From the NCBI GenBank assembly GCA_001972305.1, contig BDDD01000118.1:456060-520059 (forward strand): a stretch of 64,000 nt of DNA, read 5' to 3'. The notes beneath the pieces are model-generated. The model saw nothing but the letters and a program-made list of their open reading frames with translations, was not told the DNA's origin and ran no database searches. The stretch comes from Cephalotus follicularis (taxonomy: Eukaryota; Streptophyta; Magnoliopsida; Oxalidales; Cephalotaceae). Below, one piece after another: positions 138-62,835 of this stretch; positions within the stretch are counted from its first letter, which is position 1, and each line of letters begins with the position of its first letter. Position numbers and translations under genes: made by a program.

Positions 138-249
138 AATCGGCTGCCTTCAAGAATAGCCGACTGCTTTGGTTGAGTAGTCGACTACTTTGCCTTGGCA
201 GTCGACTGGATAGGTTGAGTAGTCGACTGCCATGGGGAGCAGTCGACTG
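138..249. repeat. TCGA palindrome array in G1 LTR
   Basis: Six sites with core TCGA or one-base variants start at 140, 160, 181, 202, 223 and 243, so the spacing is 20, 21, 21, 21 and 20 bp. The best sites read CAGTCGACTG, a perfect 10-bp palindrome. The linkers differ from each other, so this is not a plain tandem repeat. The same array is in the right LTR at 6670-6776. Confidence 0.9.
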
Positions 250-1267
250 CCTCTGCCCAGAAAATGCAGGCAGTAGCAAGTCATGCAATTCAAGTTCAAT
301 TTTCAATCAATTTCAACACATGTAAACATGCAGAAAATAGACATACACAATATGCATACTATATCTTCCATAACATATCATTACCCCTACCTTAAATTGT
401 TATCCCAAGATCAATTGGAGTTGATCTTTCTCTTTGTGTTCCAAGTCCATTTCACCAATAATCTTTCAATTCCAGCAAGATCAATCTATGCATGTTTGTT
501 TATGAACACATGCATCAGTACCAGTAAGTTTCAATAACTCTAATCAGTGGTTAATCATTAATCCATTTAAGTCTTAACTTTCCTTTTCCAATTTCCCTTT
601 TTGAATTCTATGTCAAGTATCAATCAATCTCGGATTCATTGATCTTAAGTGTGTTGACAGAATATGCATTTACATTTAGGAAACCAGTAAGCATATTCAT
701 GACATTAACAATAACCATAATCCATTCTAGAGGTTATAGTCACCAATTCCACTTGATCCAATTACTACTTTCCATTTCAATTCTAGAATTTGTTATCTTT
801 AATTATGTTAACAGAAGGTATTCAACATTCTCCTAGTTATATTATCATACCATGGCAGTGAGCTCGAGTTTAGAAACTTATCAAGAGTCTAAAGCTTCCA
901 AGTCCTCCTTTGAGCTCTCTAAATCATCCAATGCAAGCTTTCAATAATTCTTAGCAACTCTCACTTCACTCAGTGTTTTTTAACACTCATCTCACCATTC
1001 AACAGATGATATAAGGTCAAAAGACTTTGAATTCGTAAGATTCCTTTTCTAAGTCACATGCACTCATCTTTCTCTCTTTTCTTTCCATCACATGCATCCC
1101 TCTCTTCACCTTTCTCTCATTATTTTTCATTTTGTAGGTTGTAGGTCTGCAGAGAACATGCAAGAATTCCGTTTTGCATGTTATGGCAGGTGGTGACATG
1201 CATGTGCCACCTAACACACCTGTCCTCCTTGTCTCTGCACATGCCAGAAGTCTGTCCGGCACTAATC

Positions 1268-1346
1268 CAGTCGACTGGCTGTACTGGGCAGTCAACTACC
1301 TTCAACACGTATCATGCAGTCGACCGTTGCCCTGTGACAGTCGGCT
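1268..1346. repeat. Second TCGA palindrome cluster in G1 3' LTR
   Basis: Sites start at 1271, 1292, 1320 and 1341 (spacing 21, 28, 21). They include a perfect CCAGTCGACTGG. They lie in the segment missing from the right LTR, near the 5' end of the LTR in element sense, where a retrotransposon U3 region would be. Confidence 0.8.
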
Positions 1347-1521
1347 GTGTGGGCTGGTTTAGGGCTTCTTAATTTTTGATACTTCACCAATTGCACATCC
1401 ATTCATCCCAAGCATTTACCAATCATAGAAATTAATATAATTGGACAATTAACTCAATTAAAATGTATATTTTATTTCAAATTTGGATCCATATACATTA
1501 ATTGAATTTGCGGTTATTACA

Positions 1522-1534
1522 TTCCCCCCTCCTT
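1522..1534 (-). other. Polypurine tract of G1
   Basis: On the minus strand this reads AAGGAGGGGGGAA and is followed directly by the LTR start TGTAATAA. A purine run immediately upstream of the 3' LTR is the primer for plus-strand DNA synthesis in LTR retrotransposons. Confidence 0.92.
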
Positions 1535-1566
1535 ACAGAAAATTCGTCCTCGAATTTAGCCTTTCA

Positions 1567-5336: not shown

Positions 5337-5339
5337 TGT

Positions 5340-7324
5340 TGTCACACTCCGTTTTCCCAATCACGTAAGACAAGCATATGTGGTGATATCAGAATAAGCA
5401 AAAATAATATTCCAGCACAATTCATAAATAAATTTGCGGAAGCATTCGATAAGCCGGAATATAATTACAAGCCGTCCGCACACATCCCATACTACGTGCG
5501 GTTACAATCTAACCATATCCTTAAACAAAAGGAAAAACAACATAACAAGGGATGTGATCCGTTCGATACAATATAATACATCATAAAGGAAATAACAACC
5601 TTAAATTGACAATAGAAGCTCTCCAAGCTTCAGCGGCAATCTCCACACGTCTTCGCTTAATCTGGAATTGTAGGGGTTAGCCATTGTCCTCACTTGGATA
5701 AGTAGGAAGATAATGCATGCTAAGAAATATATGAATGGAACATGTATGACAGTTTATATCAAAATAACATTTAAATGAGCCAATATATGAGCAATCATGC
5801 CAAGTGGCCATAAACAATACATATGCAAGAATACCGCACAAGGGTACAATCAATTCATCCATCAATTGGGTGTCACATGTCGCTAACTCCTAGCACCAAC
5901 TGTGCACCACCTATCTATCACCCTACGCTCCGAGAATGATAGATTAGGTAACATTTACTACTGGCGTTAGCGGGTAGTTTAACAATCAATCTCTGCGTTG
6001 CAGAACAGTTTGGGTGATACTCTGGCCAACTCCTGGCACCCAGAATCACATCCGTAGTCAGTGACATCCTCCATCACTCAACCACGGCAATAACATAGAC
6101 AAACAATACAAGCATTTCAATAATAATATTACATATATCCGTAATATGCAATATAAAAGTTGTTTACTTTAGAAACATATAACAATTCATTCATCGTACA
6201 TCTCATTAGAGGGAAACGATATCAATTCAATAGTGGTTTCCAGTTTGGGAACCAAAACAGTAAGTACCTCTCATATATGAGGACAATCAGTAGTTCATTT
6301 GGCAATAATCATTCTTTTGAAAATGATAGTTGATATCATGATTTGGGTACATAGCCCATATTTGTTTTCAATTGTTGAATACAATTGGTAGTGGTGTTAA
6401 ATGACACCAAAACAGTTTATACTAATATGACAGTAGCATATTCAGTAACAATATCACAATTCAGTAGTAATGTAAGGGTTCACAATAATAGCATTTCATA
6501 GTCATTCATATGCAACTCTCACAAGGAGTGCGTACATTGTTTAGTTTTGGAATGTAATTGTATATGAGGCCAGGATTAACTGTTCTAGTCATCCATATGG
6601 AGGCCAAGTTCATTACATTCAAAATTGAGACCTTAACAGGACTTATATCAGAAATTTTACCCAGAACAATCGGCTGCCTTCAAGAATAGCCGACTGCTTT
6701 GGTTGAGTAGTCGACTGCTTTGCCTTGGCAGTCGACTGGATAGGTTGAGTAGTCGACTGACATGGGGAGCAGTCGACTGCCTCTGCCCAGAAAATACAGG
6801 CAGTAGCAAGTCATGCAATTCAAGTTCAATTTCCAATCAATTTCAACACATGTAAACATGCAGAAAATAGACATACACAATATGCATACTATATCTTCCA
6901 TAACATATCATTACCCCTACCTTAAATTGTTATCCCAAGATCAATTGGAGTTGATCTTTCTCTTTGTGTACCAAGTCCTTTTCACCAATAATCTTTCAAT
7001 TCCAGCAAGATCAATCTATGCATGTTAATTTATGAACACATGCATCAATACAAGTAAGTTTCAATAACTCTAATCAGTGGTTAATCATTAATCCATTTAA
7101 GTCTTAACTTTCCTTTTCCAATTTCCCTTTTTGAATTCTATGTCAAGTATTGTGGGCTGGTTTAGGGCTTCTTAATTTTTGATACTTCACCAATTGCACA
7201 TCCATTCATCCCAAGCATTTACCAATCATAGAAATTAATATAATTGGATAATTAACTCAATTAAAATGTATATTTTATTTCAAATTTGGATCCATATACA
7301 TTAATTGAATTTGCGGTTATTACA
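5340..7324 (-). repeat. 5' LTR of chromovirus G1
   Basis: The LTR has TG...CA ends on the plus strand (TGTCACACTCC at 5340, TTATTACA ending 7324) and is followed inward by the PBS. Its length of 1985 bp is 727 bp shorter than the other LTR would be: after 7150 the sequence jumps to the equivalent of 1348. As the 5' LTR it would drive transcription, and the lost part lies toward its U3 end in element sense, so the promoter may be gone. The target duplication cannot be checked because the left flank is outside the window. Confidence 0.93.
6668..6779. repeat. TCGA palindrome array in G1 5' LTR
   Basis: Sites start at 6670, 6690, 6711, 6732, 6753 and 6773 (spacing 20, 21, 21, 21, 20), the same phasing as in the 3' LTR, with a few base changes between the copies. 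Confidence 0.88.
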
Positions 7325-9448: not shown

Positions 9449-10525
9449 TGAACAAGAATATCAAGCAATAGCAATTTAAACAGCAATTCAAAGAGAGAGA
9501 GTTTCTGAGATTGCAAACACTATTTTAGAGTGGTTCGACGTAACTCTTGCCTACGTCCACTTTTTCCAAGGATTTCCTTGAGTTTCCACTAGTCTCCGAA
9601 TACAATTCAGGGTGCTATTCGGTACACCTTTATGATTGAACTCAATCACTTACAATTCTCTTGGGTTCACTCCCCAATTTCTTCTAGGGTTCACTCCCCT
9701 ATTACAATCAAAATGAATAGAGTAATGTTTTGATCTAAACCTCTCATAAGGTTGGATTTTACAAGATAAATTCGCTCAATGTAATTCACAACAAAGATAG
9801 GCTAAGATATGAAATGAGAGCTTTTGAAATGAACTTTGAATTTGAGTGCTTGTTGTATGATTTCTTTGAATTCTTTTGTAATTTGAATTCTCTTGTGTTG
9901 CTCCTCTTATTTCTCTTCAAAACTCCTTTGTATATATGTGTTTTTGCCTCAGAGATCCGTTGGGTATTGTCTTCAAAGTTGTTGCATCAAAGACGGCTCA
10001 TTAAAGCTCTGTCAGAATTCTTTTCAGCGTGCAAGGCGTCGACTGTCTCCTTCAAAGCGCCGACGCTTATGTGACCGTTAGGTACTTCATTTTGAAATTG
10101 TCAGCTCAAAGCGCAGGCGTTCTGAGCGTTGGAGTCGATCGGCACCTCAAAGCGCTGACGCTTAAGTTTGGGCGTCGACGCTTGGGCCAAATTGAATTCC
10201 AATTGAGCGCACTGGTTTACTCAGCAGACGCTTTGTCTCAAGGCGCTGACGCTTTGTGTCAAAGCGCAGAAGCTTGAATCTTGGGCGTCGACGGTTTGAG
10301 TATTTGTTATTCTTCTCAAAGTGCTTCACCGGTAAACGCTTTGTTCATTGTCTCGACTGTCTCTCAAAGCGCTGACGCTTTATTCCTGAGCGTCGACGGT
10401 TTGCCCTGTTTCTGCAGTTTTCTTGTGCTATTTTGTGCATTCCATGGTTTTCTTGCACATCAAGAAACTTTGTTAAACACAAATATGTTATCATCAAAAC
10501 TAGGATTGAGACATAAATGTCAACA
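9449..10525 (-). repeat. 5' LTR of the Sirevirus-like fragment
   Basis: The right end at 10525 matches, in reverse complement, the start of element C's LTR (TGTTGAC, then TCTCAATCCTAGTTTTGATG). The left part contains the reverse complement of the GTGGACGTAGGC segment that element C's LTR has near its 3' end. The LTR abuts a gag lacking its N-terminus, so the primer-binding site, leader and first gag codons were deleted. The boundary at 9449 is inferred from the TG and is less certain than the right one. Confidence 0.8.
10037..10398. repeat. TCGA palindrome array, CGCTGACGC dialect
   Basis: Cores start at 10039, 10060, 10135, 10155, 10175, 10225, 10246, 10267, 10288, 10353, 10372 and 10393. 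The run 10225-10288 has three consecutive steps of exactly 21 bp. Arms are AAAGCG/CGCTTT, often with CTGA or CCGA as a degenerate centre. Confidence 0.85.
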
Positions 10526-11639
10526 GTATTGAACAATTCATTTTAATTAAATGATCATACCTTGATAACTAACAGCAGCTAGGTCGATACGGAGTGCGAC
10601 TATGATGACAGATCGTATGAGTAGTCATACTAGGTCTATACGGAGTGCGGCAGCGGCGGCAAATCGTATGAGTAGACATGCTAGGTCTATACGGAGTGTG
10701 TTCGGCGTGACAAACCTTATGAGTAGACTCCATTGATTGCATTAAACACCATTTATTCAGCAACTTTCAACTTCACCGACAAGATGTTTGTGGATTTTAA
10801 TCAGACAGACAAAGTGTGTGTGAAGGCAGAAAATTGAAGAATAAATAAAATATTCAAGTGCCTAAAACCTATTCAGCATAAATAATTGCCCATAAATAAA
10901 TTGATCAAAGTCGACAATTTTAATTTTGTTTCTTTTCTTTGAATTGCGGCGCATGTGCTAGACTTGTATGCATGCATAATTTATTAGTTGGTAAGGTGTG
11001 GGCTGCTGGCGTTGAATTGCTTGGCGTAAGAGATGGCAACACGTGGGCTGCTGTATGTTGGCATGTTGCATGGTTTGCATCATGTCATCAGTGGCGTGTT
11101 AATTGAAGAATGCTGGGCGTGTTGACTTCAGGACTCGTGGCGCATGTTGATTTGTTTGCAGGATGGGCTTATGTATTGCATGGCGATGATGGATGATGTG
11201 CATGGGCTTGTTGGTGCGCACATGGATGCGTGTTGCATGGGCTGAATATGGCGTGAATGGCTGCTTGCTGAAGAATGCATGCAATTTGCATTGATGTAAT
11301 AGTAATGGCATAATGGTAATATGTCATGTAATCCAAATGTGTCTTTTAACTATATCTCTTCACTTGGATCTCGGAATATGTCGACCCAAGAATTAAAAGT
11401 GCACCAAATAATTTTATGAACGCAATGAGTCCATATGTTTCGGTAACTTCCAAATGTTTCATAATTACCATTATGCCATTATCTCTAATTTTGACTCCAA
11501 AATTAGCTTCTTAGCTCCATTTATTTATCTTTCACTGAATTAAACCAAAAACCTGAAAATACAACAAAACATACCCGAGTAATCTGATCCAAGCATAAAA
11601 ATATAACAAATAGATCATTAAAAATAAGTCATTTTTGTA
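10526..11639. other. Unassigned stretch between two LTRs
   Basis: No coding region or known element end was recognised. It holds the 51-bp triplicate at 10579-10731, then about 350 bp rich in GGCGTG, TGCATGG and TGTTG words (10980-11300) and AT-rich sequence to 11640. It could be the remains of an older LTR or intergenic DNA. Confidence 0.6.
10579..10731. repeat. Three tandem copies of a 51-bp unit
   Basis: Units start at 10579, 10630 and 10681. Each opens with CTAGGTCNATACGGAGTG and has CNTATGAGTAG near its end, while the middle differs (CGACTATGATGAC, CGGCAGCGGCGGC, TGTTCGGCGTGAC). The unit length is a multiple of three, so a minus-strand frame stays open across the array, but nothing else suggests coding. 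Confidence 0.9.
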
Positions 11640-13240
11640 CTAAACAGCAATAAGAGAAGGAGACAAGGATATTATACCAGCGGGTGAAGGCTCCTTCTTT
11701 CTCTACCGCTACACGCTTGGGAAGACACCTAACTCGTTGCTTCCAAACTCCTCGGTACAGAATCTACTCCAACAAGGAAGATCAAAAGCAAAGTTCTCTC
11801 ACTCTCTCTTTAAGCTTGAGAAGAGTAAATTCACATTAACAAGACTTAGCCAAAATCAATCCACCCTAGTCAAGAACTTGCTTGGTGTATTACAGTGAAG
11901 GGAACACTATCTGCAGAGAGAAATTCGAACTACTCTTGCCCAGCAAAAATATCAACTCAACTCATTCTAACAAAAAATCTGCATATTTTTCTTATCACTT
12001 GCCTCCTTCTTCTCTCTCCCACTCTCCCATTCACTTAGGATCATGGTCCTCACTCCTAGGGAGTCTATGGTCATGATCCCCACGTTCCTATAACATGCAA
12101 GAATGGGAGATAAATACTGGAAATGAGAGAGAAAACGTGCCCACGAAGTGAGTTCGGGCATAGGTTGCACGTCCTGCTCAAAGACGTCGATGCTTTCCAA
12201 AAGACATCGACGCTTATGTAATGTGGCACTAAAAACATCGGTGCTTTCTAAAAGACATCGACGTGTTTACAAGTGTTAAGCGTTGACACTTCCCAGAAGG
12301 CGTTGACGTTAAAAACACAATAACGCTCGACGCCTTTCCCAGAAGGCATCGACGCTTTTCCTGGCAGGTGAGGTAATTTGAGTCTAACTCCTTTAGTGAT
12401 CTCAAGTACCCTTCGAATATTGATTAAGTAAGATCAAACAAATATGTTTCCACAAAATGCAAAATCCACATAACCGATATTTGACACAAAGACTTAATAT
12501 GTCCAACATATAAAAGATCTAATTATTATTGGGCAGGGACCCTATAAAATCTTGGTTAAAACCAGAGGTGTTCATAAATTACGCACTCACTTATATTCGT
12601 ATAGATTCGATCATACCCAAAGACCACCCGATTTCCAGCCCTGCGTAAGGACTGGGTAAGGTGGAGATCAAAGCATAACCGTCTCCATACAATATAGAGC
12701 AATCGCTCAGGTCTAAGGATCAGACGAGTTTGAGAACTCGCTAAGTGATCATCACTTATACAGGACCGCAACAAGTAGGAGTCACTACTGACACGAGAAT
12801 AGCGACTATCCAAATAGTGTCTCCTATGCGGGTCCAGTTCAGTGTACACGCTCCCAGTGCACACCCCGTATTTTCTCTAGTGTCCAACAGATATGGTAGT
12901 GAGAGAATCCATCCTCCAATTCCTTGAGCAGGCAACATACGCGCAAGTCTATCTGGTTCACTAATGCCCACAAAGTGAACCTATGACTTGGAACTAATTT
13001 GACATAAGGAATAAGGTAACCAATCTCACAGCCTCCATGCTAGGTATCCAACCTTATGTTGGGGCATCACAAGTGTAAGCAGGTAAATAATAAACTACTT
13101 CAATTAAGTGATAAAACACAAGTGATATTGCCATAACAAATTAGCACACATCATATATACAAGGAATAAGATTGTTTCATGCATGATAAGATATAATATG
13201 ACAACCCATCTAATGGCTTGTCGGGTCACTATATCTAACA
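11640..13240 (-). repeat. Partial LTR of copia family A
   Basis: From about 11696 it matches the A LTRs at 20668 and 46759 (the AAGGCTCCTTC segment, the CATGATCC segment, the GGGCAGGGACCCTATAAAATC segment) and it ends in CTAACA at 13240 like them. The first few hundred bases of a complete A LTR are not recognisable, and the left limit is approximate. The next base begins a different LTR. Confidence 0.8.
12185..12355. repeat. TCGA palindrome array in A LTR (copy 1)
   Basis: Cores start at 12187, 12207, 12238, 12258, 12283, 12303, 12327 and 12349. They form four pairs with internal spacing 20, 20, 20 and 22 bp. Within pairs the linker is typically TTTCCCAGAAGG or TTTCCAAAAG. Confidence 0.87.
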
Positions 13241-13241
13241 T

Positions 13242-20102: not shown

Positions 20103-20387
20103 CGTTGACACTTTCCAAAGGCGTCGACACTAAACGCATAAGCGTAGATAGTTTCCTAGAACCCGTCGATGCTCAACGTTTCAAATACTGCATGGATAAG
20201 TGTCTACAATTTGCCACAAACGCGTCGACGGTTTCCAAAGGCGTCGACGCATAGGCACTAAGCGTCAACGGTTTATAATAAACCGTCAATGCTTAACACA
20301 GCCAACATCGCTAAAAATTCAATTCCATTAGAATGAACGTCGACGCTTTTCATAAGCGTCGACCCTTATACCTGCTATTTGTCGACA
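20103..20387. repeat. TCGA palindrome array in A leader (copy 1)
   Basis: Cores start at 20105, 20124, 20145, 20166, 20203, 20225, 20244, 20265, 20286, 20340, 20359 and 20382; nine of eleven intervals are 19-23 bp. Best sites read GCGTCGACGC. The array lies in the leader, outside the LTR, so it is not explained by LTR duplication. Confidence 0.87.
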
Positions 20388-26698: not shown

Positions 26699-27963
26699 CT
26701 TGTTGAAAACCCGGGAGGGCTCTCGGTCGATTTTGGGTCTAGGACGTAAGTGTGTATAATTCTAATTTTTCGAAAGCACCAAGACAGAAAGTCAATGTTG
26801 ACACTTACATCTTAGTACCAAAATAAAAGGCCAAGGATCTCTATTTAATTAACAATCAAACTAAAACATAAACGAGCATGCACATAAAGATAAACCGAAC
26901 ACACGTCGGTAAACATAAAAGCATAAGGTAAGCGACCATACCAACGTTGGAGGCTCCACCACTTAGCCGCTACGTGCTTGAAGTAGACTCATCCCGTCAC
27001 CAGACCACTGCCAGATTCTAGCCAACCTGTCAAAACGCCGACCCTGACACCAACGGACTCCAGATGCACAGATCTATCCATATTCGGCGGAGACACGGTG
27101 AGAAGCACAATGCAATGACGCAGCCGACAGCGATCGTGACTCACTGAGTTGGACTCAGCGAGTTCCGATTCAACATCACCACGGACCGGCCGGGCCATAT
27201 CCAAATCCCAAGAAGGCGATCAACACAGTGGAGGGGGAGACTCGCTGTGACTCACCATGGAATGTTCTCCTTTTAATTTGATAAAAATGTCTCTCACATT
27301 TTTAATAAAATTAAAACATGATCCCGCTAAAAAACTCTTTATATATCAAGATGATAATTAGTTGAATGAGAAACAACCCTTAATATCAAAATAATATATA
27401 CTAGTTAAAAACTAGATTTACCACCAAGCGAGCATGTGTGCAACATGCGTCACTTTTCCAATAATTGGGCGGGACCCAAAAGCCCAGTGGAATTCCGGTA
27501 CGATGATAAATTTTCCAGAACGTCCTGAAGTTCTGGTACGACTATCCAGCCAATAGTCCAGGTGTGATCTATAATCACCCCTGAATCCGTGAGCAAAAAG
27601 TATCACGTCTATCATTCGTTAACCGATTTCCCAGTGCTTTATCACTGTCATCGATTTGTGTGCCACGTATCCTTCATCATCTCGGCTCTGACCGCGGACT
27701 AGGGTTTGGATTAATGTCACCCCTAGGTAAAACCGTGATAATTATAATTCTATTAACGCACTGAGACTGTAATACCCGCCATTTTAAATTCGATGTATAT
27801 TGTGCCATCAATGAATAAAGTATATATTGAATTGAGAATTACTGCTTAATTGTCTTTTATTGAGCTAAGTGTTGATATTGAATTAGAATGAAAGCTTAAT
27901 TGTATGGCATTGAGCTACAGGGAGAAGTTATTGTAAGGGGACTTAAAGGAGGATTTGCCAAAC

Positions 27964-28066
27964 AACTGACTATTCGTAGAACAATCGACTAGGCAATTTG
28001 AATTGGTAATAGCTGACTATTAGAGTAAACAGTCGACTGGATGGCTAATGAATGAAACAGTCAACT
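27964..28066. repeat. TCGA palindrome array near the start of G1 solo LTR
   Basis: Cores start at 27966, 27985, 28013, 28033 and 28061 (spacing 19, 28, 20, 28), all of the CAGTCGACTG dialect or variants of it. Confidence 0.8.
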
Positions 28067-28832: not shown

Positions 28833-29127
28833 GGCCGATTGTTCATGATAACAGTCGACTACTCAATAGGAACAGTCGACTGTTAATGGAGACAGTCTAC
28901 TACTCGACTGAAACAGCTGACTGATCAAGTGAAATAGCTGAATGTTTAAGTGAAATGTCGCCACTTAGTTGACGCTTAACAGTAAGCTGGTGAAGCTTAA
29001 CAGTAAGCTGGTGACGCTTAAGTGCAAATTGTCGACGCTTAAGTGGAAATGCCTCGACGCTTAATGAAGGAACCGTCGATGCTTAATGCATGAATTGTTG
29101 AATGCTTAAGGAGTATTTTATCGACGC
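28833..29127. repeat. Long TCGA palindrome array with a dialect switch
   Basis: Cores start at 28835, 28855, 28876, 28897, 28917, 28938, 28958, then 28990, 29011, 29032, 29054, 29076, 29098 and 29121; twelve of thirteen intervals are 20-23 bp. Up to about 28938 the sites follow CAGTCGACTG; from about 28969 they follow GTCGACGCTTAA. Confidence 0.9.
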
Positions 29128-44999: not shown

Positions 45000-46745
45000 A
45001 CTAGCAACCTAGATAAGGAAATATAAGCATTAGTTAGCATTTATTCCAATTTTAATATATGACAACCATAACACTTGGTCTTTAGTGTTTATGGTTCCTC
45101 CCACTATTCTAATCATATCCCATACCCCCATATGGAACTCGAGAAGTCCAACTTCCTAGTGGGGATTGGAATCCATCGCAATCATATTATAGCCTCAGCT
45201 AGGGCATGACAAACTATAATATATCCAATGGATAGGCTTTCTTGCCAATTTTTATCTAATACAAGATCCAATCATAGCATTCAGCCTCAGATTCAATATG
45301 GCCTCAATTAGGGCATGACAAACCATCAGAATCTTGATAAGTCAAGTACCCATAATTTTCATTGGAATGCACTAGTTTTAACACCCACACGTAGGCGTGT
45401 CCAAGTGCTAAAACATACCCACCCTTTGCGGTGCCCAACACCGACGTTGACATAATATCCCCAAGTTATCAGCCTCAGCTAGGGCATGACAAACCAACAA
45501 CTCAGGAACACTACTCAACGAAAATTGTGGAAGGCCACGGGGAACCACTCCATGGGTTCCTACGTTAAGACTTATTATTAAGGTGAGGGAATTTACAGTC
45601 TCAAAATTTTAATTACCGAGCCATTAATTAATTCATTGGTTGTATTAGCCAATTCTAATTAATTACGGCTTAGCGTGTAACACGTGTATCTTATGCACCT
45701 TGGACATATTTATAAAATATGTCAATGTTGGCTAGGACATTAATAGTAGTGACTTGAGCCCAAAGACACTACTTGGTCTTACTAGGTGTTAAGATATTAA
45801 ATTTAATCTATTACATCAAATACCATGCATACATGCCATTCGAAGGTCTTGTACTCTCATTTCCTCCATCTCTCCTTGCAAGATCTTCATTTACAAAACA
45901 GTACTTTACATTTTGAAAATAAAAAGTACATTCAAAATTTACAAAGAGAAACTACAAAAGAAAGGAAAAATAAATGGTGCACGCAGGCACCTTATTACAG
46001 ACCATTAAATGTAATAAATAAATAAATAACCATCCACACTAAGAAAACCATAATCTAGGTCTGTGTCCATTTCGGGACATCGATTGTGAATAAGACTTAA
46101 ATTATATCCAATATAATTAAAACACAGAATAACAAAATACCATAAATAATAACCAATAAACAAAAATTTAATTTAAGGATTGTTAATAATGGTTAAACTC
46201 CCACTAAATCAAGCAATGATTTTGATTTTCTAAGTACCATAATGTATACAATCCAATTTTATTAAAAACAAAAAAAAAAATTATCTAAAGCGTCAACGCT
46301 TTCTCAGAAGGCGTCGACGCTTACCTCTAAGGCGCAAAAACACAAAAATCAAATAAGCGTCAATGCTATACCAAGGCGTTGATGCAAAAACCATCCCAAC
46401 AAGACAAGCGTCAACACTTAAGCCAAAAGCGTCGACGCTTAAGTCCCCTGGACAGTTTCTGCAATTCAAAAATTGCAGAAAATTTCGGTTTGAACATTAG
46501 GCATATACCACACCTGTCATTACCAGATAAATTACTACCTTAAACTACACCATGTAGGTTTCCAAAACATGTTCAAACACCATTTTAACATAATCTCCAA
46601 GATTGAACAAGAATGAAATCCAATTTCATACATAATTCATTAAGGCACTTTGAATATCAAGTTTAACCCAAAAACACATCCTTTAATTAAACCTTTAATA
46701 AGTACATCATTCATAGCAAAAATTCAACCAATGATGATGTGGGAG
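45000..46745 (-). other. Copia A (copy 2) 5' leader
   Basis: This is untranslated sequence homologous to 18802-20654, with the leader block at 45975-46003 and a palindrome array near its far end. No coding sequence was found. Confidence 0.85.
46291..46438. repeat. TCGA palindrome array in A leader (copy 2)
   Basis: Pairs of cores at 46293/46314, 46360/46379 and 46411/46432 (internal spacing 21, 19, 21). The first pair has the linker TTTCTCAGAAGG. Confidence 0.87.
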
Positions 46746-47521: not shown

Positions 47522-47696
47522 CGTTGACGCTTTCAATAATAGCGTCAACGCTTATGCATTACATGGAACTAAAACGTCGACATCTTTCTAAAAGTCATCA
47601 ACGCCTATGCATGCCTTAAGCATCGACGCTTCCCAGAAGGCATCGACGCTTTGTCCAAAGGTATGCGTCGACGCTTTCCCAGAAGGCGTCGACGCT
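47522..47696. repeat. TCGA palindrome array in A LTR (copy 4)
   Basis: Cores start at 47524, 47545, 47577, 47598, 47623, 47643, 47668 and 47689, forming four pairs with spacing 21, 21, 20 and 21. The last pair is the cleanest: two GCGTCGACGC sites joined by TTTCCCAGAAG. Confidence 0.9.
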
Positions 47697-48122
47697 TTGA
47701 CTAGTATATAAAGCAATTTGAGTATAAGTCCAACTTATTTAATCCCTTCTAATATTGATTAAGTAAGATCAAACAAATATGTTTCCACAAAATGTAAAAT
47801 CCACATAACCGATATTTTACACCAAGACTTAATATGTCCAACATATTAAAGAACTAATCATTATTGGGCAGGGACCCTATAAAATCTTGGTTAAAATCAG
47901 AGGTGTTTATAAATTTCCAAAATACCCCTAGGGTCCGGTTTAGCCATTCTAAATGGTCCTTGACCAATTTGAATGCTCTCGGAATAATATCTAATATTAT
48001 CCATATGAAAATTTAATCTAATTAATTTTCTCATAATATTATTACATACCTCTTTAACCCTAGATTTTCTAAGTCGTCGGTTCACGTGTACTATAATCCC
48101 TTGTCATGCATTGTAATTCCCT

Positions 48123-48124
<2 letters not shown>

Positions 48125-48175
<51 letters not shown>
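48125..48175. repeat. (AT)25 dinucleotide tract
   Basis: An uninterrupted alternating AT run of 51 bases lies 13 bp inside the LTR edge. Such tracts are unstable in copy number and can extrude as cruciforms. Confidence 0.95.
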
Positions 48176-48178
<3 letters not shown>

Positions 48179-48185
48179 GGCAACA

Positions 48186-48213
48186 GGCGCATAACACAAG
48201 TGTGTTATGCGCC
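48186..48213. repeat. Perfect 12-bp inverted repeat, 4-nt loop
   Basis: Arms GGCGCATAACAC (48186-48197) and GTGTTATGCGCC (48202-48213) around AAGT. It lies 11 bp after the AT tract. Confidence 0.93.
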
Positions 48214-49403
48214 GGGCTCATCACTTGCGCTAAGAAGAACAGAAGACAGAGTGTGGGAGAGAAAGCGAGAGAGAGCGGGAGAGATGGCGCTGGAGAGAAG
48301 GACCGGCACCGGGCGAAGCGAAGACGGCCGGAGGACGTGCGGTGATCGCCTCAACCGACGGTAACTCTCTCTTCCTCCTTTCTCTTTCCTTCTTCTTTGC
48401 CAGACCGCCTCTGTCACGCACTGCTGTGCGTTTCGCCACCGGTTAGCATTATGGATGGTGCTGGTCTTCGTCTAGAAGGCTAGCTTTTCCCGTTTTGACC
48501 ACTGTTGAGGCGCCATTCGACCAAAAACGGCCGGATTCGAACTGACGAGTTGACTCAGTGGAGCCAACTCACTGCCGCCTTTCACCACGCGTTTGGCACC
48601 GAGTCTCGGCGAGTTAAGGGCATGGATGTGCTGATATGATGGTTGTGATGCGTTTTACGGTGGTAGCCAGAGTTGTGGTTGACTGTCGAGTCAACTCAGT
48701 GAGTTGGACTCACTGCCGACTGTGACTGGGCGTTTCGGCGCCGATTCACGGTGAGTTACGGGTGGAGACACCTTAAGCCGGCTGTTTGTGACACTTTTGT
48801 GAAGTGGCCAGAATTGTGGATGTTCGACGAGTCAACTCAATGAGTTGACTCACTGTCGGCTGTGACTGCGTGATTCACGGTGAGTCACAGTGAGCCTCCA
48901 ATGGTTTTGAACATATCGTCCGATGTGGAACCTATTTTTGGGTTTCGCCGGAGCTGAATGAGTTGGCTGGAAACTGGCCGAAGCTCCGATGACGGCTGTT
49001 CTTGGTTTCCATGCGTAGAGTGTAACGGAAATGTGTTGTGCATGCACGATAAAGGAAACGATCAAGGATAAACGAAACGATCACGGATAGAGGATTTCTG
49101 AGCTTTACGAGCTCTGTTGCTACGAGGTAGGTTATACTATTGCTTGCATTACATTCATGCATTCTAAATAATTATATGGATTGATGTGTATGAATTGTAC
49201 TTGTATGGATGCATGATTGTATATATATATAATTGCATATGGCATATGATATAAGGGTTCGATATTGAATTAAGAGGATATGAGTTCTTGCCTTCTCTTA
49301 ATTCACGGGCTATGGGATAAACCTTAAAAAGGTCTTTGAACTGTTTTGGACATAGTTCCATTGGTTTACGAACTCTATCACCAACCACATTTTCTATCAA
49401 AAT

Positions 49404-49613
49404 CGTCAACGCTTTATGCTTTCAAAACTAAACCTGTCGACGCTTTCATGTCTTAAACTGAGTAGTCGATGTTTTATACTTATGATTTCTAAAACTGTCG
49501 ACGCTCTTATGAGTTAAACCAAATAGTCGACGCCTTATGCTTTAAAACAAACCGTTGACACTTTATACTTGTGCTTTTTAAAACTGTTGAAGCCCAGGGC
49601 TAAGCATCGACGC
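49404..49613. repeat. TCGA palindrome array in G4, about 30-bp spacing
   Basis: Cores start at 49406, 49437, 49466, 49498, 49527, 49555, 49587 and 49607 (spacing 31, 29, 32, 29, 28, 32, 20). Sites read GTCGACGCTTT or AGTCGACGCC. Confidence 0.85.
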
Positions 49614-49844
49614 TTAATGCCCTATTCAGCCCAAACACACCGTTTTACATGGTTTTCCATCAAAAATGGTTTTATCTTCAACCGGATTCCATAGAAAGCC
49701 TCCCTAAGGCTTTGTAACCTATGGAAATCCTTATGTATCACGTTTGATTTCTAAATCGATGTTCAAGTGAATTTTTAAGGAAAGTACTCAATAAAAGAGT
49801 TTTACGCAAATGGTTTCTAAATGGTTTTCAAAATGGTTAGGATA

Positions 49845-49975
49845 GTTCCATTGGGATATCGAGACACGGATATCTTATTTGGACTTCCTTTCCATTGTTT
49901 TATGGATTTCAGAATGGTCAGGTACTTCCATTGGGACATCTGGGCGCGGATACTCCCATTTGGACTCCCTTTCCA
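49845..49975. repeat. Two copies of a roughly 65-bp unit in G4
   Basis: TTCCATTGGGA, then a GCGGATA-like segment, ATTTGGACT and CCTTTCCAT occur at 49845-49895 and again at 49925-49975. A third partial copy begins near 49355. Confidence 0.75.
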
Positions 49976-50280
49976 TATATTATAACTTCGATAGGGACCA
50001 ACCAAATGATATATGAAAAATTGATTAGAAAATGGATTATGGACACAAAAATGGCCATTAAATATGAAACAAAATGACTCATGATTACAGAAATGACATT
50101 ATATGTTTTGACGGATGTGGATCCCATGAGATCCTTTACAAAATGGTCCCTATTATTTAAAACACACATGATTTTGGGTCACAACTACGGGATGGATTAT
50201 TGATTGTATTGTATGAGACTAACGAGATAACCCATTCCTGACTTTCATTTACATCGTGAATGTCATGAATGTTAGACCAC

Positions 50281-50500
50281 AGTTTATACCACATTGTGAT
50301 CGCGGACCATACAAAAGAGCTTACCTCACCTTGTGGTTGACTATTCTGTACCCGGCTTACCTCACATTGTGATCGCGGACCATACAAAAGAGTTTACCTC
50401 ACATTGTGATTGCGAACCATTAGGTACAAGACTTATCTCACATCGTGGTGCAGGCCATATAAAAGAGTTTACCCCACGTTGTTAGAGGACCAATATGAAT
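50281..50500. repeat. Degenerate tandem repeat in G4
   Basis: TTACCTCACATTGTGATCGC and ACCATACAAAAGAG recur about every 50-100 bp with variation (near 50285, 50325, 50355, 50390, 50430, 50465). Confidence 0.8.
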
Positions 50501-52443
50501 TATGATACGACACCGTGGTCAGTGTTATCTCATTCCTCACACCTCCACGACACCAAAAGTGCGTCGAGGGTGGGATGAACCCTATGGACCGGTTGTCCCT
50601 ATTATTGATATGGATTGTTATATGGATTGTCTGCAGACCTATGGCCTTTTATGTGATTAGGACTAGCCCGATATACCACTGCTTAGGGACAGTTGGTATA
50701 CTGACGACGTCCGTAATTGTCATTTATGCACACGACATGCCAGACATACATTGATATACTGTTACACGCATATCACTATTATACTGTTGCATGCATAGCA
50801 TAGTATACCTACACGACATTATGTCGCTGACCCATTTCCCCTGTATACGGAATGGGTCAAGCTCAGGCACAGGTGATGGACTGCAGTGAGGTAAGCTGAA
50901 AAGGACAGGTTTTCTATAACAGCTTTTGGTAGCCTATTGTATATGGAGTTGCTTGTAATTGGGTTTGCTTATATGAGTTGAATATAAGAGTTGTATAAAA
51001 GGGGACTCATGTTTATGATTAAAATGTATTGAGATATAAGGCTTGTTAAGTATAAGGATTGTGAAACGGAACCCTGTGTATTTGAGACAAATATAAAGAT
51101 GTTATAGTTATGTTTTATTCAGCAATCGACCTGCCGACATGTGGCAGTGCTTATGATATGTGTATTTATGTATTAAACAGGGACAAGCCCATCATTTGAG
51201 GCATTAGAATGATATGATACTGGTTTAGTTGTGATGGCTGAGGGCTGAGCCCATATATATACATAAACTGTTGATTCCTCCTTCGAGAGTGTTGAGATAT
51301 ATAAAATGTGTTTTCCTTTACAGGGGGTTTCGTCCTATAAACGAATACTTCATGCCGAAATTTTGGGGGATTTTAAGAGTTAGTTTTTATTTGATTTGAT
51401 TATTCCGCTGATGTTATATAATGATTCTTCCGCTTATATGACTTTGATTTAAAGTTTTAAATTTGTAGCACTTTTTGGAGTATGAATTATATGATTGAAT
51501 GACTGAAGAGAATGAATATCACGCGTCAGATAGTGGGGGTTTACCCTCGCGGTTCAGGGCGCGACATGCTTGGCCCCGATTGACGTCTAGGATAAGGATA
51601 CGTGTCAACCCTAGATAATACCTCAATGGCTAAAATATCTGATCATTTCTAGGACTTTTGGTAAACTCTCCAAAAATCTAATTTCCAGTCTACCTCAACT
51701 TTGGCCAAAGGTTTCATAAGTCCAAAGTATAATCAGATCATAATCGAGTCAATCACCTTCGCTTAGGTGTGACAATCTTATATTGCGCACTCATTTATAT
51801 TCGTATAGATTCAATCATACCCAAAGACCACCCGATTGCCAGCCCTGCACAAGGACTGGGTAAGGTGGAGATCAAAGCATAACCATCTCCATACAATACA
51901 GAGCAGTTACGAAGGTCTAAGGATCAGACGAGTTTGTGAACTCGCTAAGTGATCAACACTTATACACAACCGCAACAAGTAGGAGTCACTACTGACACGA
52001 GAATAGCGACTATCCAAATAGTGTCTGCTACGCAGGGCCAGTTCAGTGTACACGCTCCCAGCGCTCACCCAGTATTTGCCCTAGTGTCCAACACTTATGG
52101 TAGTGAGAGAATCCATCCTCCAATTCCATGAGCAGGCAACATACGCGCAAGTCTATCCGGTTCACTAATTACCACGAAGTGAACCTATGACTTGGAACTA
52201 ATTCGACATAAGGAATAAGGTAACCAATCTCACAGCCTCCATGCTAGGCATCCAACCTTATGTTAGGGCATCACAAGTGTAAGCACATAAATAATAAACT
52301 ACTTCAATTAAGTTATAAAACAAAAGTGATATAGCCATAACAAATTAGTACATATCATATATATAAGGAATAAGATTGTTTCATACAAGATAAGATATAA
52401 AACGACAACCAATCCAATGGCTTGTTGGTCACTACATCTAACA

Positions 52444-53297: not shown

Positions 53298-53424
53298 ATT
53301 TCTGTTGACGATTTAGTCTCAATCCTAGTTTTGATGATAACATATTTGTATTTAACAAGTTTACTTGATGTGCAAGATGTTACAAAGTTGTACAAAAGGC
53401 AAAAACTCATCTGCGGGGCAAAGA

Positions 53425-53953
53425 CATCGACCTTCCAGAAATGACATCGACGTCCGTACAAAAAGACATCGATCCCTTCCAAGAAGACATCGACGTCTTT
53501 AGTGCCAGAAGTTACAGGTCAAATTTTAATGAAGCCATCGATCCCTTCAAGCAAAGACATCGACGTCTGTACACAAGACATCAATCCCTATCAAGAAGAC
53601 ATCGACGTCTTGAGGTGCCAAAGTTACAGGACAATTTCGATTGATGACATCGATGCTTGTTCATGAAGACATTGACATCCATGCAAAGAAGTCGATCCCT
53701 TTCCATAGACATCGAAGCCTTTCTAGATCTATCTGCATTTCCCAGAAAAGACATCGACCCCTACAGAAGAAGTCGATGTGATGCTCAAAGATTCAAATGC
53801 CTGGAGATTTCCTAGAAATGACATCGACGCCTTTAAAAATACATCGACGTCTTTTTAAATGGTTTGACCCCGGAAACATGGAACGGCTAGCTGGCGCACT
53901 TACAATGACTAGTAACAGTCAAAGACATCGACGCCTTTCCAAAGACATCGACG
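53425..53953. repeat. TCGA palindrome array in element C 5' LTR
   Basis: Eighteen cores start at 53427, 53447, 53469, 53490, 53538, 53560, 53581, 53602, 53650, 53672, 53692, 53712, 53754, 53773, 53824, 53844, 53928 and 53948. Short steps are 19-22 bp; three larger ones (42, 84 and roughly 48) are close to multiples of 21. The typical site is AAGACATCGACGTCTT, a 16-bp palindrome with one mismatched pair. The array lies upstream of the TATA box, in U3. Confidence 0.92.
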
Positions 53954-54050
53954 TCTTTATATCAGCAGAGACAAAATTCAAAGTTGCACTAACACATTTT
54001 AAAATCAAAAGCTTCCATGATTTATGCAACGGCTACAAATCTTTTCTGCC

Positions 54051-54058
54051 TATAAAAG
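54051..54058 (+). promoter_or_regulatory. TATA box of element C LTR
   Basis: TATAAAAG lies about 100 bp after the last palindrome of the array and is repeated in the 3' LTR at 62298. Transcription would start about 30 bp downstream. Confidence 0.75.
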
Positions 54059-54589
54059 GAAGACTCAAACCTCAGAAGAAAAAACACTGAACTACATCAA
54101 TTCAACAAGAATTACACAACATCAAGAGAGATATCATATTCAAGCATTCTATTGCAAAAAAGCTCAAAGTGCTCTATAGTGTTCTAAAAGACTTCTAAGC
54201 TTTATCTTTTGAGTTTTTCTGAGTGTTTCACATTGTGATCTGTATTAGCCATATCAAACCTATTTGAGAGGTTATCTTGTAAACACTTTCACAATTACTT
54301 GTAAAAGAGGAGAATCCTCTAAGGTCTTGAGGTCAAGGTCTTGTGATTGAGGTCAATCACGAAATTGTAAGGTGTAACGAATTTCTGCCCTAATCAATTC
54401 GAGATAGTGGAAACTCAAGGAGCTCCCTTGGGAAAAGTGGACGTAGGCAAGAGTTAGCGAAGCACTCTAAATTCGGAGAAGTTTTTCTTTCCTTGACTCT
54501 TTACTTTTAAAGTTTTTAATTTCCCGATATTTACATCAATATTCAATTCACCCCCCCTCTTGTATATTGCAAGAGTGTTTATTTTCAAT

Positions 54590-54600: not shown

Positions 54601-54645
54601 AGGTTAATCTTATTTCTTAATTGTTAGAGATTACAAAGATCCTTC

Positions 54646-59132: not shown

Positions 59133-59362
59133 CGTCGACTCCTTTTCTGGAAAATTCTATGTTTTATGAAAACACGTCGATCTCTTTCACAAAACATCGA
59201 TTTCTTTGTGTTTCCCTGAAACACGTCGACTTCTTTATAAACACGTCGATGCTTTTCAAAACGCACCGTTTTCTGGCTCTTTTTTAAAGAACGCATCGAC
59301 GTCTTTGGAATCACGTCGACGTCTTTAACCCAGAAATCGACTTCTTCATAAAAACGTCGATC
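59133..59362. repeat. TCGA palindrome array between pol and the extra ORF
   Basis: Cores start at 59135, 59177, 59197, 59227, 59247, 59297, 59317, 59337 and 59357; intervals are 42, 20, 30, 20, 50, 20, 20 and 20. Sites read ACGTCGACTTCTTT or CATCGACGTCTTT. This array is internal to the element, outside both LTRs, and ends about 160-210 bp before the extra ORF. Confidence 0.9.
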
Positions 59363-59519
59363 TCATGCTCATATCACACTTTAACCCTATTCAGAGTTTT
59401 TCAGAAATTTTCTACTCTCTCTATTTTTCTTCAAAAATCGTTCTATTTGTTCGAAAACAATCTTCTGAATCCTTCCTCAACATCAAAAACTGTTTTCATT
59501 TCCTCCAATCAAACTGTTT

Positions 59520-60887
59520 TTGTCTTTCTCAATGTCTTTCTATTGTGCTCACCAAGTGTTTGATAATATGGTTAGGTCAAAACAAGTTGCCCATAAAAAG
59601 GTTGCATCATCTTCTCAGCCTAAGAAATCTGCTAAAAGGCAGAGGCTTGACATTAGGGAACCTTCCCCTGATCCTGCTCTACAATCGGACTCCGAATCCG
59701 AAGAGCAAATTCCACTCCGAAATGTTGTTTTTGTGGACAAACGTGTTATGGGAGGCAGAAACATTGATCTTGCCTTCTGTTCTAGTGAGTTTTCTTTCGT
59801 TTCTTGGCTTGAGGACTTACACCTTCTTCCCCTTGTACAAATCCAGGACCCTTTTTATATAAAATTGGTCAAGGAGTTCTATACAAATCTTAGGATTGTA
59901 TCCAGCCCTAATGAGGAGTTTGCTCTCTCCTCTACTGTCAAAGGGCAGCGTATCTATCTAGATGCTAGGATTCTAGCCTCTATCCTCCACATTCCACACA
60001 CCGGCTTATACATTTTTTAGCATAAAAAATGGCCGGAGGTTGAGGGTTTTCACCCTAATCAAATTTTGTATATTCTATACCCAAATGATCCAAACATACA
60101 TCCTAATATGGCACTGACCACAAACAGATTGTCAGTTGACCATAGGCTACTCCACCATCTCATTGTGCACCAATTTCTTCCCACCGGTGGTGGGTATGCC
60201 AAGCTATCCCGGATGCAAGCATTCCTCATGTGGTGCATCCTCTCCAAAATCGAATTTTGTTTTCCCCTTCTCATACTCAAAACTATGGTGAGAGCATTCA
60301 CTCAAAAGAAGTCCGTTCTACCATTCGGATCCATCCTCACCAAAGTCTTTCTCCAAAACCAAATTCGACTTGAAGGAGAAATTGCAACGAAATTGAAGAA
60401 GGAGGACACTTATAACAAGAGCACTATGAATAGGATGGGTTGGAAAAAGCAAGGAGGCATTTGGACTTATTGCCCCAAAGTTGATCAAGGGCCAAGGATT
60501 GAAAGAATTGAAGAACAAGAGGAGAACCCTCCATGGGAAGCTCAAGAAGAAGCTGCACCGGCTCAGGCTCAAGCTCAAGGCTCCTCATCCACCACTGATT
60601 ATGATAGGATTATGGAATTTATGCGCTCTAGATTCGATTCTATGCAAGCTTCACTTGAAGAAAAATTTGAGCAAGTCAACTCGCGGCTCACTAGCTTGGA
60701 AAAAGATCATGTGACGATTTGGTCCGACTTTGATAACATCGATGACACCATCTACTATGACCTAAAATTCGTAAGGAGGCATCTCAAAAGGATGGAACGA
60801 AAACTCGCGGCTTCCAAGACTATTGATGCTTGCGAAGAGACTTCGGGCGATGACTCCGATTCTGATGCCCCTCATGCTGCTTCCTGA
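59520..60887 (+). pseudogene. Element C extra ORF, plant-transposon-protein-like
   Basis: One frame from ATG 59520 (or the better placed ATG 59568) to 60887, broken once by TAG at 60018-60020. From the second ATG it is about 439 codons. It has a basic patch near residues 18-26 (PKKSAKRQR) resembling a nuclear localisation signal, then a central domain (WLEDLHLLPLV, ILASILHIPHTG, further on KLSRMQAFLMWCIL) that I recall as resembling the family annotated putative plant transposon protein, then a Gln/Ala-rich linker and a likely coiled coil (about 350-415, FDSMQASLEEKFEQVNSRLT). There is no signal peptide or transmembrane segment. Function is unknown; the position is that of the extra ORF of Sireviruses. 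Confidence 0.8.
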
Positions 60888-61536
60888 TTGCTTGTTGCTG
60901 CTGTTATTTATTAGTTGCTGTTTTGTGTCTTTGGTTGTAATGAACCTAGATGTTATGTTGTAAGGACAATGTTTTTGTTAATGAAATTATGTGTTGATTG
61001 TGTTTATGAAATTGTGTTTATATTTTTTTATGATATAGTTTTATGTATTGTGTTTATGTTATGATATGGTTTTTTATGAATGCGTTTGGTTAATAATAAT
61101 ATGTTTTCTCAATTATATTCATTGTTGATATTTTGATATTTTGTGCATTAATACTTATGTTCATATTTTCTTACCCTTGCTTTTATTAAGGGGGAGCTAA
61201 TGATTTCTACCTTTTTGATGCTATACAAAAAAGGGGGAGAAGAGGCTCAAAATGTTAGAGTTTGACTCAAAATGTTATGGGAGAAATAGGCTCAGCATAT
61301 GACAACTTAATAGCATTGCTACCTTTTTTTTTAAAAGGGGAGAAAGGGCTCAACAAGTTAGATTTTATAACTAATGGGGAGAAAGAGCTCTCAAAAGCAA
61401 AACTCATAGCTTATTGATATTGCACACTCAAAATGAACATTGCTTACTTTATAAGATATCTCTATTTGTATCACTTATGTTTTAATTGGTATTAATTATG
61501 TTTATGCCTTTTTTGAGCAAATTTTTGTCATCATCA
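60888..61536 (+). other. Element C 3' untranslated region with repeated polypurine tracts
   Basis: AT-rich and non-coding. Besides the tract next to the LTR it holds four more: AAGGGGGAGC (61188), AAAAAAGGGGGAGA (61227), AAAAGGGGAGAAAGGG (61333) and ATGGGGAGAAAGAG (61374). Several are followed by GGCTC or AGCTC within 15 bp, indicating duplication. Confidence 0.85.
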
Positions 61537-61549
61537 AAAAGGGGGAGAT
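61537..61549 (+). other. Polypurine tract of element C
   Basis: AAAAGGGGGAGAT-type run immediately before the 3' LTR start TGTTGACG. Confidence 0.93.
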
Positions 61550-62835
61550 TGTTGACGATTTAGTCTCAATCCTAGTTTTGATGATAACATATTTGCATTT
61601 AACAAGTTTACTTGATGTGCAAGATGTTACAAAGTTGTACAAAAGGCAAAAACTCATCTGCAGGGCAAAGACATCGACCTTCCAGAAATGACATCGATGT
61701 TCGTACAAAAAGACATCGATCCCTTCCAAGAAGACATCGACGTCTTTAGTGCCAGAAGTTACAGGTCAAATTTTAATGAAGACATCGATCCCTTCAAGCA
61801 AAGACATCGACGTCCGTACGAAAGACATCGATCCCTATCAAGAAGACATCGACGTCTTGAGGTGCCAAAGTTACAAGACAATTTCGAGTGATGACATCGA
61901 TGCTTGTTCATGAAGACATCGACGTCCATGTAAAGAAGTCGATCCCTTTCCATAGACATCGACGCCTTTCTAGATCTATCTGCATTTCCCAGAAAAGACA
62001 CCGACCCCTACAGAAGAAGTCGATGTGATGCTCAAAGATTCAAATGCCTGGAGATTTCCAAGAAATGACATTGACGCCTTTAAAAAGACATCAACGTCTT
62101 TTTAAATGGTTTGACCCGAAAAACATGGAACGGCTAGTTGGCGCACTTACAACGACTAGTAACAGTCAAAGACATCGACGCCTTTCCAAAGACATCGACG
62201 TCTTTATATCAGCAGAGACAAAATTCAAAGTTGCACTAACACATTTTAAAATCAAAAGCTTCCATGCTCTATGCAACGGCTACAAATCTTTTCTGCCTAT
62301 AAAAGGAAGACTCAAACCTCAGAAGAAAAGACAATGAACTACATCAATTCAACAAGAATTACACAACATCAAGAGAGATATCATATTCAAGCATTCTATT
62401 GCCAAAAAGCTCAAAGTGCTCTATAGTGTTCTAAAAGACTTCTAAGCTTTATCTTTTGAGTTTTTCTGAGTGTTTCACATTGTGATCTGTATTAGCCATA
62501 TAAAACCTATTTGAGAGGTTATCTTGTAAACACTTTCACAATTACTTGTAGAAGAGGAGAATCCTCTAAGGTCTTGAGGTCAAGGTCTTGTGATTGAGGT
62601 CAATCACGAAATTGTAAGGTGTAACGAATTGCTGCCCTAATCAATTCGAGATAGTGGAAACTCAAGGAGCTCCCTTGGGAAAAGTGGACGTAGGCAAGAG
62701 TTAGCCGAACCACTCTAAATTCAGAGAAGTTTTTCTTTCCTTGACTCTTTACTTTTAAAGTTTTTAATTTCCCGATATTTACATCAATATTCAATTCACC
62801 CCCCCTCTTGTATATTGCAAGAGTGTTTATTTTCA
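61550..62835 (+). repeat. 3' LTR of element C
   Basis: 1286 bp, about 97% identical by eye to the 5' LTR. The TCGA array repeats with the same spacing (61674, 61694, 61716, 61737 and so on). Many of the differences fall on CpG within the array, for example CGACGTCC against CGATGTTC. Confidence 0.96.

What the first reader, a model, noticed from the sequence alone, without database searches (positions are those of the whole stretch)
138..62210. TCGA-centred palindromes spaced about 21 bp in seven different LTR groups
Clusters of short self-complementary sites with core TCGA occur in the LTRs of G1, G2, G3, G4, copia A, the LTR at 9449-10525 and element C, and in untranslated internal regions of copia A (20103-20387, 46291-46438) and element C (59133-59362). 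I placed about 150 sites by hand; 79 of 113 neighbouring intervals are 19-23 bp, and several longer ones are near 42 or 84. Linkers are not conserved, so simple tandem duplication does not explain the phasing. Unrelated gypsy and copia families sharing one spaced motif implies convergence on a common host or element factor, exchange of a module, or both. About 21 bp is two helical turns, and also the length of one plant small-RNA class. A parallel is the VANC anti-silencing protein of Arabidopsis VANDAL elements, which recognises short motifs clustered in non-coding DNA.
Basis: partly seen in the sequence, partly recalled or inferred. Interest (0 to 1): 0.88.

Follow-up and report, generated by a model that had tools for sequence, protein, structure and literature searches.

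The report
Phased TCGA palindrome arrays in retrotransposons
Several only distantly related plant retrotransposons in this window carry runs of a short mirror-image DNA site, often one every 21 letters or so, in control regions, which looks like a docking array for a paired DNA-binding protein and extends a pattern already known from one retrotransposon genus.

Summary
With duplicate LTR copies masked, 25 TCGA pairs lie 20-22 bp apart (300 dinucleotide shuffles: mean 1.26, maximum 5); TCGA ranks first of 256 tetramers. The signal is in LTRs, copia A leaders and the stretch before C's envelope-like ORFs, not in 16.6 kb of ORF blocks or 17.1 kb of other sequence. The unit is about 18 bp, AAAGnCGTCGACGnCTTT-like; arms are alike (0.60-0.66), linkers much less (0.26-0.40). 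A matrix trained on other lineages finds 90 sites, 47 of 79 intervals being 19-23 bp.

Corrections: the LTRs form three lineages (gypsy G1/E and probably F; Sireviruses C/SirB; copia A). F is spaced 28-32 bp, long-range phase is weak, and the C array includes a 112-bp duplication.

For Sireviruses this is known (PMC2829016). Sharing with another copia and with gypsy LTRs, and the spacing, I did not find in my searches. Best reading: a U3 enhancer array for a dimeric DNA-binding factor. Hairpin/small-RNA models remain open; within-family arm covariation is absent. The genome-wide test did not complete.

The parts
5340..7324 (-). G1 gypsy 5' LTR (array 6711-6776; partial 3' LTR copy at 1-1522 with array 181-246)
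   Evidence: GGTATCAGAGC at 5335 minus, LTR ends TGTAATAACC..GTGTGACA; RVP_2 and RVT_1 on the minus strand at 2790-4400, SH3_Tf2-1 at 1735-2748; intervals 21, 21, 20
9449..10530 (-). SirB: LTR (approximate bounds) of a second Sirevirus-like element, array 10039-10396
   Evidence: LTR ends 76-80% like element C LTR; zf-CCHC ORF 8051-9031; 74% DNA match 8979-9439 to the C gag region; matrix steps of 19-21 bp
12187..12352 (-). copia A LTR array 1
   Evidence: TCGA list; 8 leave-lineage-out sites in 12130-12400
20124..20385 (-). copia A leader array 1, downstream of the PBS (20666 minus) and before the gag/pol ORF fragments
21399..21511 (-). copia A LTR array 2
27768..30173 (+). E: solo LTR of a G1-related gypsy family, sites 28855-28907 and 29032-29124
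   Evidence: TGTAATACCC..GTGTGACA ends beside a paralogous uninterrupted site near 37610; 65% to G1 LTR; intervals 21, 22, 22
46291..46438 (-). copia A leader array 3, downstream of PBS 46757 minus; 2 strict TCGA sites in 46270-46450, 6 matrix sites in 46250-46470
   Evidence: coordinates as given by the finding
47577..47692 (-). copia A LTR array 3; the LTR appears to run from 52443 to about 46759 on the minus strand, interrupted by F
   Evidence: LTR ends read
48112..51566 (+). F: apparent solo LTR nested in the copia A LTR; array 49437-49610 with 28-32 bp spacing
   Evidence: TGTAATTCCC..GCGACA, near-matching 5-bp flanks, uninterrupted paralogue at 21939; spacing
53303..54587 (+). Element C (Sirevirus) 5' LTR; array 53427-53951; last site 103 bp before TATAAAAGG
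   Evidence: 17 TCGA sites; TATA at LTR position 749, last array site 646; ends read
59135..59360 (+). Element C array just before the envelope-position ORFs (59469-60887)
   Evidence: 9 TCGA sites; 5 pairs at 19-23 vs 0.2 expected
61550..62835 (+). Element C 3' LTR (97% to the 5' LTR), array from 61674 on; AGGGGGAG at 61189, 61232, 61540; 5-bp flank repeat ATTTC at 53298-53302 and 62836-62840
   Evidence: flank repeat read

Best explanation
The arrays are cis-regulatory docking arrays. Each about 18-bp imperfect palindrome (roughly AAAGnCGTCGACGnCTTT; CAGTCGACTG-like in G1) would be read as two half-sites by a dimeric DNA-binding protein. Neighbouring sites about 21 bp (two helical turns) apart would lie on the same face and let dimers bind side by side. 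In the Sirevirus LTRs this gives a U3 enhancer whose last site is about 100 bp before a TATA box; the pre-ENV and copia A leader copies would be internal enhancers. Shown: the sites, the spacing, conserved arms, mostly free linkers, presence in three lineages, array-to-TATA distance in two Sireviruses. Inferred: that a protein binds, that it is dimeric and shared, and that it activates transcription.
For: Arms alike (0.60-0.66), linkers 0.26-0.40 in four groups. Spacing near two turns in 6 of 8 region sets. Cross-lineage matrices find the sites. Within groups there is no arm covariation beyond the consensus (0.503 vs 0.499, P 0.41, 71 sites in 8 groups), as expected if each half-site is held to a consensus. 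Pooled over groups the arms do change together (e.g. 0.62 vs 0.39 expected at one offset), so dyad symmetry is kept between families. Last site to TATA 103 bp in C, 106 bp in SirB. PMC2829016 places such boxes shortly before a TATA box.
Against: No binding, expression or methylation data, and no call tested a transcription factor. F is spaced 28-32 bp and phase over longer distances is weak, so two-turn spacing is a tendency. Matrices from the other lineages find gypsy sites only weakly. The between-family arm covariation would also fit RNA pairing. A clear TATA relation was seen only for the Sireviruses; in copia A and the gypsy LTRs it is unclear.
Confidence: 0.55

Rival explanations
1. The palindromes act as RNA: transcribed arrays fold into hairpins between units and are cut into small RNAs, feeding silencing (as proposed for maize Sireviruses).
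For: 12 of 12 array stretches fold better than 60 dinucleotide shuffles each on average (z -1.9 to -6.8) while 3 control stretches give z -0.45 to 0.23. Pooled over families the arms change together. PMC5311732 and PMC10760457 (passages read) report small-RNA hotspots at Sirevirus palindromes, citing Bousios 2016 (not held).
Against: Any set of like palindromes folds this way, so folding does not discriminate. Within groups arm covariation is absent. Folding is weakest in the longest array, the C LTR (z -2.3 and -1.9 in halves; -3.1 whole).
Confidence: 0.2
2. Old minisatellites: a 21-bp unit multiplied by tandem duplication, its remnants still in register, with no present function.
For: Tandem Repeats Finder reports periods of 19-22 at many of these places, and 28 in F, and a 112-bp duplication in the C LTRs.
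Against: Neutral decay should wear arms and linkers alike, but arms keep 0.60-0.66 identity and linkers 0.26-0.40. Similar units in three lineages would need repeated origin or exchange. The comparison is conditioned on TCGA, which favours the centre itself but not the outer arms.
Confidence: 0.1
3. Module exchange: one array was copied between element families by recombination or template switching, so the sharing is by descent.
For: Local alignments between lineages, e.g. copia A LTR1 to C pre-ENV 66% over 148 bp. Of 33 cross-lineage array pairs, 9 scored 22 or more and were tested: 0 of 150 shuffles reached the observed score in 2 pairs, 2-36 of 150 in 7.
Against: The null breaks short linker patterns next to the arms, so the excess is soft; the tested pairs were chosen by score; linkers are mostly unlike.
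Confidence: 0.15

Closest known systems
Palindromic repeated motifs (RM boxes) of Sirevirus LTRs and pre-ENV linkers (Bousios 2010, PMC2829016; section 9 and passages read)
   Same: Palindromic, at least 8 and up to 32 copies per element, mostly in the upper LTR half before a TATA box and clustered before ENV, defining CpG islands; two published boxes have a TCGA core (Vitis CGGTCGACCG, Tnd-1 ACAATCGATTGT). Element C agrees in layout; 10 of 11 arrays here have CpG o/e above 1.1 (G1 0.59; window 0.63).
   Different: The paper calls the boxes Sirevirus-specific and absent from classic copia elements, with a CGG-CCG core in 12 of 13; what I read does not mention spacing. [quoted passage not shown]
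Maize Sirevirus palindromes as small-RNA and secondary-structure hotspots (PMC5311732, PMC10760457, passages read; Bousios 2016 seen only as citation)
   Same: Palindrome clusters in the LTR cis-region that can fold; PMC10760457 also reports one palindrome shared by Copia elements and Helitrons.
   Different: Another motif (CACCGGACNNNGTCCGGTG); no gypsy sharing or spacing in the passages read.
VANC anti-silencing proteins of VANDAL elements (recalled, named by the finding)
   Same: Short motifs clustered in non-coding DNA of mobile elements.
   Different: Needs an element-encoded protein; not looked for systematically here, and the motif here is shared across superfamilies.

Membership tests
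Sirevirus (element C) | Multiple identical 8-bp PPTs clustered before the 3' LTR | tested here: met
   AGGGGGAG at 61189, 61232, 61540. The passages read describe an octamer without printing it, so the letters themselves were not compared with the paper
Sirevirus (element C) | AT/TG PPT-LTR junction and CA/ATTGG/TATCAGAGC PBS junction | tested here: met
   GGGGGAG|AT|TGTTGACG and CA|ATTGG|TATCAGAGA, i.e. 8 of the 9 PBS bases (paper)
Sirevirus (element C) | Palindromic RM boxes in the LTR before a mid-LTR TATA box, more boxes before ENV | tested here: met
   Sites at LTR 125-646, TATA at 749 of about 1285; 9 sites at 59135-59357 before ORFs at 59469-60887. That these ORFs are ENV-like rests on position only
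Sirevirus (element C) | polyC-rich integrase signal near the LTR end | tested here: inconclusive
   A run of seven C about 30 bp before the LTR end is seen in the printed sequence; the published motif letters were not seen
Sirevirus RM box | CGG-CCG core signature | tested here: not met
   Core is CATCGACG/CGTCGACG; Tnd-1 is a published exception
Sirevirus (copia A) | Sirevirus PBS and PPT junctions | tested here: not met
   LTR end CATCA|G|TGGTATCAGAGC and AAGAGGGACC|TGTTAG; RT 50% identical to C over 92 aa
Ty3/gypsy (G1) | RVT_1-type reverse transcriptase after an RVP_2 protease and before integrase parts | tested here: met
   RVP_2, RVT_1 and SH3_Tf2-1 above cut-off, Integrase_H2C2 below it (23.3 vs 25.5), no rve core hit in that ORF. 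E is tied to G1 by LTR similarity only; F only by recalled LTR-end style
VANC-type anti-silencing | Element-encoded protein binding the motif | not tested
   No candidate sought systematically; no binding data

The most novel reading that the evidence does not exclude
One host DNA-binding dimer (or a very small set) recognises CGTCGACG-type palindromes and has been adopted by Sirevirus, another copia and gypsy elements of one plant genome, each building its own two-turn-spaced array in LTR, leader or pre-ENV DNA: a common regulatory language across retrotransposon superfamilies.
Probability: 0.35. Interest if true: 0.75.

Novelty: new variant of a known kind. Interest (0 to 1): 0.55.

Why it matters
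If a single factor reads these arrays in several retrotransposon superfamilies, it would be a concrete handle on how plant retrotransposons are switched on or recognised. It would also widen a feature reported as Sirevirus-specific. The array gives a ready bait for finding the factor.

Tried and rejected
Rejected: chance; a property of ORF blocks or of other sequence in the window (controls); recent 21-bp tandem duplication as the whole cause. Not favoured: RNA-stem maintenance as the main constraint (but); strict 10.5- or 21-bp phase over long distances.

Degenerate cores: of 24 non-TCGA cores among the 90 matrix sites, 9 are TTGA and 9 TCAA, the rest CTGA (3), CCGA, TCGG and TAGA; binomial 3e-5 against their 33% share of one-mismatch tetramers in the window. 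This fits methyl-CpG decay, but the copia A arrays are homologous copies, so sites are not independent. Plain lag counts from TCGA to TTGA or TCAA were only weakly raised (1.27 and 1.86 times background) while CCGA was 4.8 times.

Led nowhere: the host species was not identified (ten best protein matches 52-58% and 53-70%; only the best 120 of several thousand were listed; named ones are mostly flowering plants). Paper searches beyond the Sirevirus set listed no title or abstract start on such arrays in gypsy LTRs (listings only, open-licence library). No call tested a match to a transcription-factor family.
Full report
OBSERVATION. TCGA occurs 238 times in the window; its autocorrelation peaks at 20-22 bp and again near 42. 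With the duplicate LTR copies at 1-1522 and 61550-62838 masked, 214 sites remain (143 expected), 25 pairs of them at lag 20-22, against mean 1.26 and maximum 5 in 300 dinucleotide-preserving shuffles of 250-bp blocks. TCGA is first of 256 tetramers for this excess, followed by tetramers that overlap the same kind of site. By region, pairs at 19-23 bp: G1 LTR 3 (0.01 expected), E 3 (0.08), copia A LTRs 5 (0.19), copia A leaders 3 (0.03), C LTR 8 (0.21), C pre-ENV 5 (0.2); none of 300 shuffles reached these six. F had 1 (0.2) and SirB 0 (0.05). The 17.1 kb of other sequence had 1 (0.49) and 16.6 kb of ORF-bearing blocks 0 (0.55).

HOW THE SITES LOOK. Forty-nine TCGA sites from C and copia A give the consensus AAAGACGTCGACGCCTTT over positions -7 to +10; information falls close to background in a gap of a few bases, then rises a little where the next unit's arms begin. 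Mean pairwise identity is 0.60-0.66 in the arms and 0.26-0.40 in the linkers, over four groups. Group consensuses differ: C LTR AAAGACATCGACGTCTTT, copia A LTR AAAGGCATCGACGCTTTT, G1 GAGTAGTCGACTGC. A matrix trained without the tested lineage finds 90 sites in 11 arrays; 47 of 79 intervals are 19-23 bp and 4 are 40-44. Cross-training works well between Sireviruses and copia A and from gypsy to both, and weakly from those two to gypsy. F keeps 28-32 bp, near three turns. Over longer distances phase is weak.

WHAT CARRIES THEM. G1 is a gypsy element on the minus strand (RVP_2, RVT_1, SH3_Tf2-1; Integrase_H2C2 below cut-off), PBS at 5335. E, 27768-30173, is a solo LTR of a related family (65% over 424 bp). 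F, 48112-51566, looks like a solo LTR nested in a copia A LTR; its gypsy label rests on LTR-end style recalled from general knowledge. SirB and C share LTR ends and gag similarity. C has three AGGGGGAG tracts, AT/TGTTG and CA/ATTGG/TATCAGAG junctions, a mid-LTR TATA box, ORFs in the ENV position and a 5-bp flank repeat; these agree with the Sirevirus layout in PMC2829016. Copia A has an RVT_2 reverse transcriptase, 50% identical to C over 92 aa, and its junctions are not of the Sirevirus type. Hence three lineages, not seven independent groups.

HOW IT MAY WORK. If RNA stems mattered, the two arms of a site should vary together. Within groups they do not: complementarity is 0.503, and 0.499 when right arms are dealt out anew within each group (P 0.41, 71 sites). 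That fits two half-sites each held to a consensus, as for a dimeric DNA-binding protein. The test has limited power for small groups and does not address pairing between neighbouring units. Pooled over groups, arms do covary at some offsets (0.62 vs 0.39 and 0.43 vs 0.28), which I read as family-specific cores that each keep dyad symmetry; that fits a changed protein preference and also RNA pairing. The 12 array stretches tested all fold better than shuffles (z -1.9 to -6.8; 3 controls near 0), so a small-RNA role, as reported around Sirevirus palindromes in maize (passages), stays open. In C and SirB the last array site lies 103 and 106 bp before a TATA box, the place of a U3 enhancer. Ten of 11 arrays have CpG o/e above 1.1, G1 being 0.59, against 0.63 for the window. 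Eighteen of 24 degenerate cores are TTGA or TCAA, products of CpG transition, which suggests methylation in silent copies (inference; limits under tried and rejected).

SHARED BY DESCENT OR CONVERGENCE. Cross-lineage alignments exist. Of 33 cross-lineage array pairs, the 9 scoring 22 or more were tested against core-permuted, linker-shuffled arrays; from 0 to 36 of 150 shuffles reached the observed score. The pairs were selected by score, so this is suggestive only.

KNOWN OR NEW. Palindromic repeat boxes in Sirevirus LTRs and before ENV are published, two with a TCGA core, and were reported as absent from classic copia elements. One maize palindrome shared by Copia and Helitrons is also published. 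I found no report of such arrays in gypsy LTRs or of about 21-bp spacing in the searches made (listings; passages or sections of three papers read). The library holds open-licence papers only and the key 2016 paper could not be read.

LIMITS. One 64-kb window, few copies per family, no host name. The whole-genome search was sent 20 times and never answered, so the spread of the pattern in this genome is unknown.

Noticed in passing
52443-46757 and 22807-20666 (minus): Copia A copies run pol, LTR, PBS, leader, gag-pol in series, as if successive elements share one LTR (possible LTR-LTR recombination products); F sits inside one of these LTRs.
   Followed up: partly
53303-62835: Element C appears inserted into a copia A pol, which continues on the far side from about 62842 to 63272; flank repeat ATTTC.
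   Followed up: partly
G1 LTR 5340-7324 and E 27768-30173: Both share TATAAACTGTCA (LTR positions 1568 and 1996) with similar downstream sequence, a candidate promoter or other conserved block.
   Followed up: no
53421-53658 and 61668-61968: 112-bp tandem duplication inside the C LTR arrays.
   Followed up: partly
22808-23855 and 34818-35866: 94% direct repeat of about 1 kb, perhaps an LTR pair of another element; no TCGA cluster of three or more there in the list.
   Followed up: no
38510-38643, 39492-39718, 50290-50482, 10579-10728: Other minisatellites, with units of 15 and 18/30, 25/50, 37/73 and 51 bp.
   Followed up: no
10039-10396: The SirB array has CTGA or CCGA in place of TCGA at 4 of 10 matrix sites, unlike the TTGA/TCAA pattern elsewhere.
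   Followed up: no
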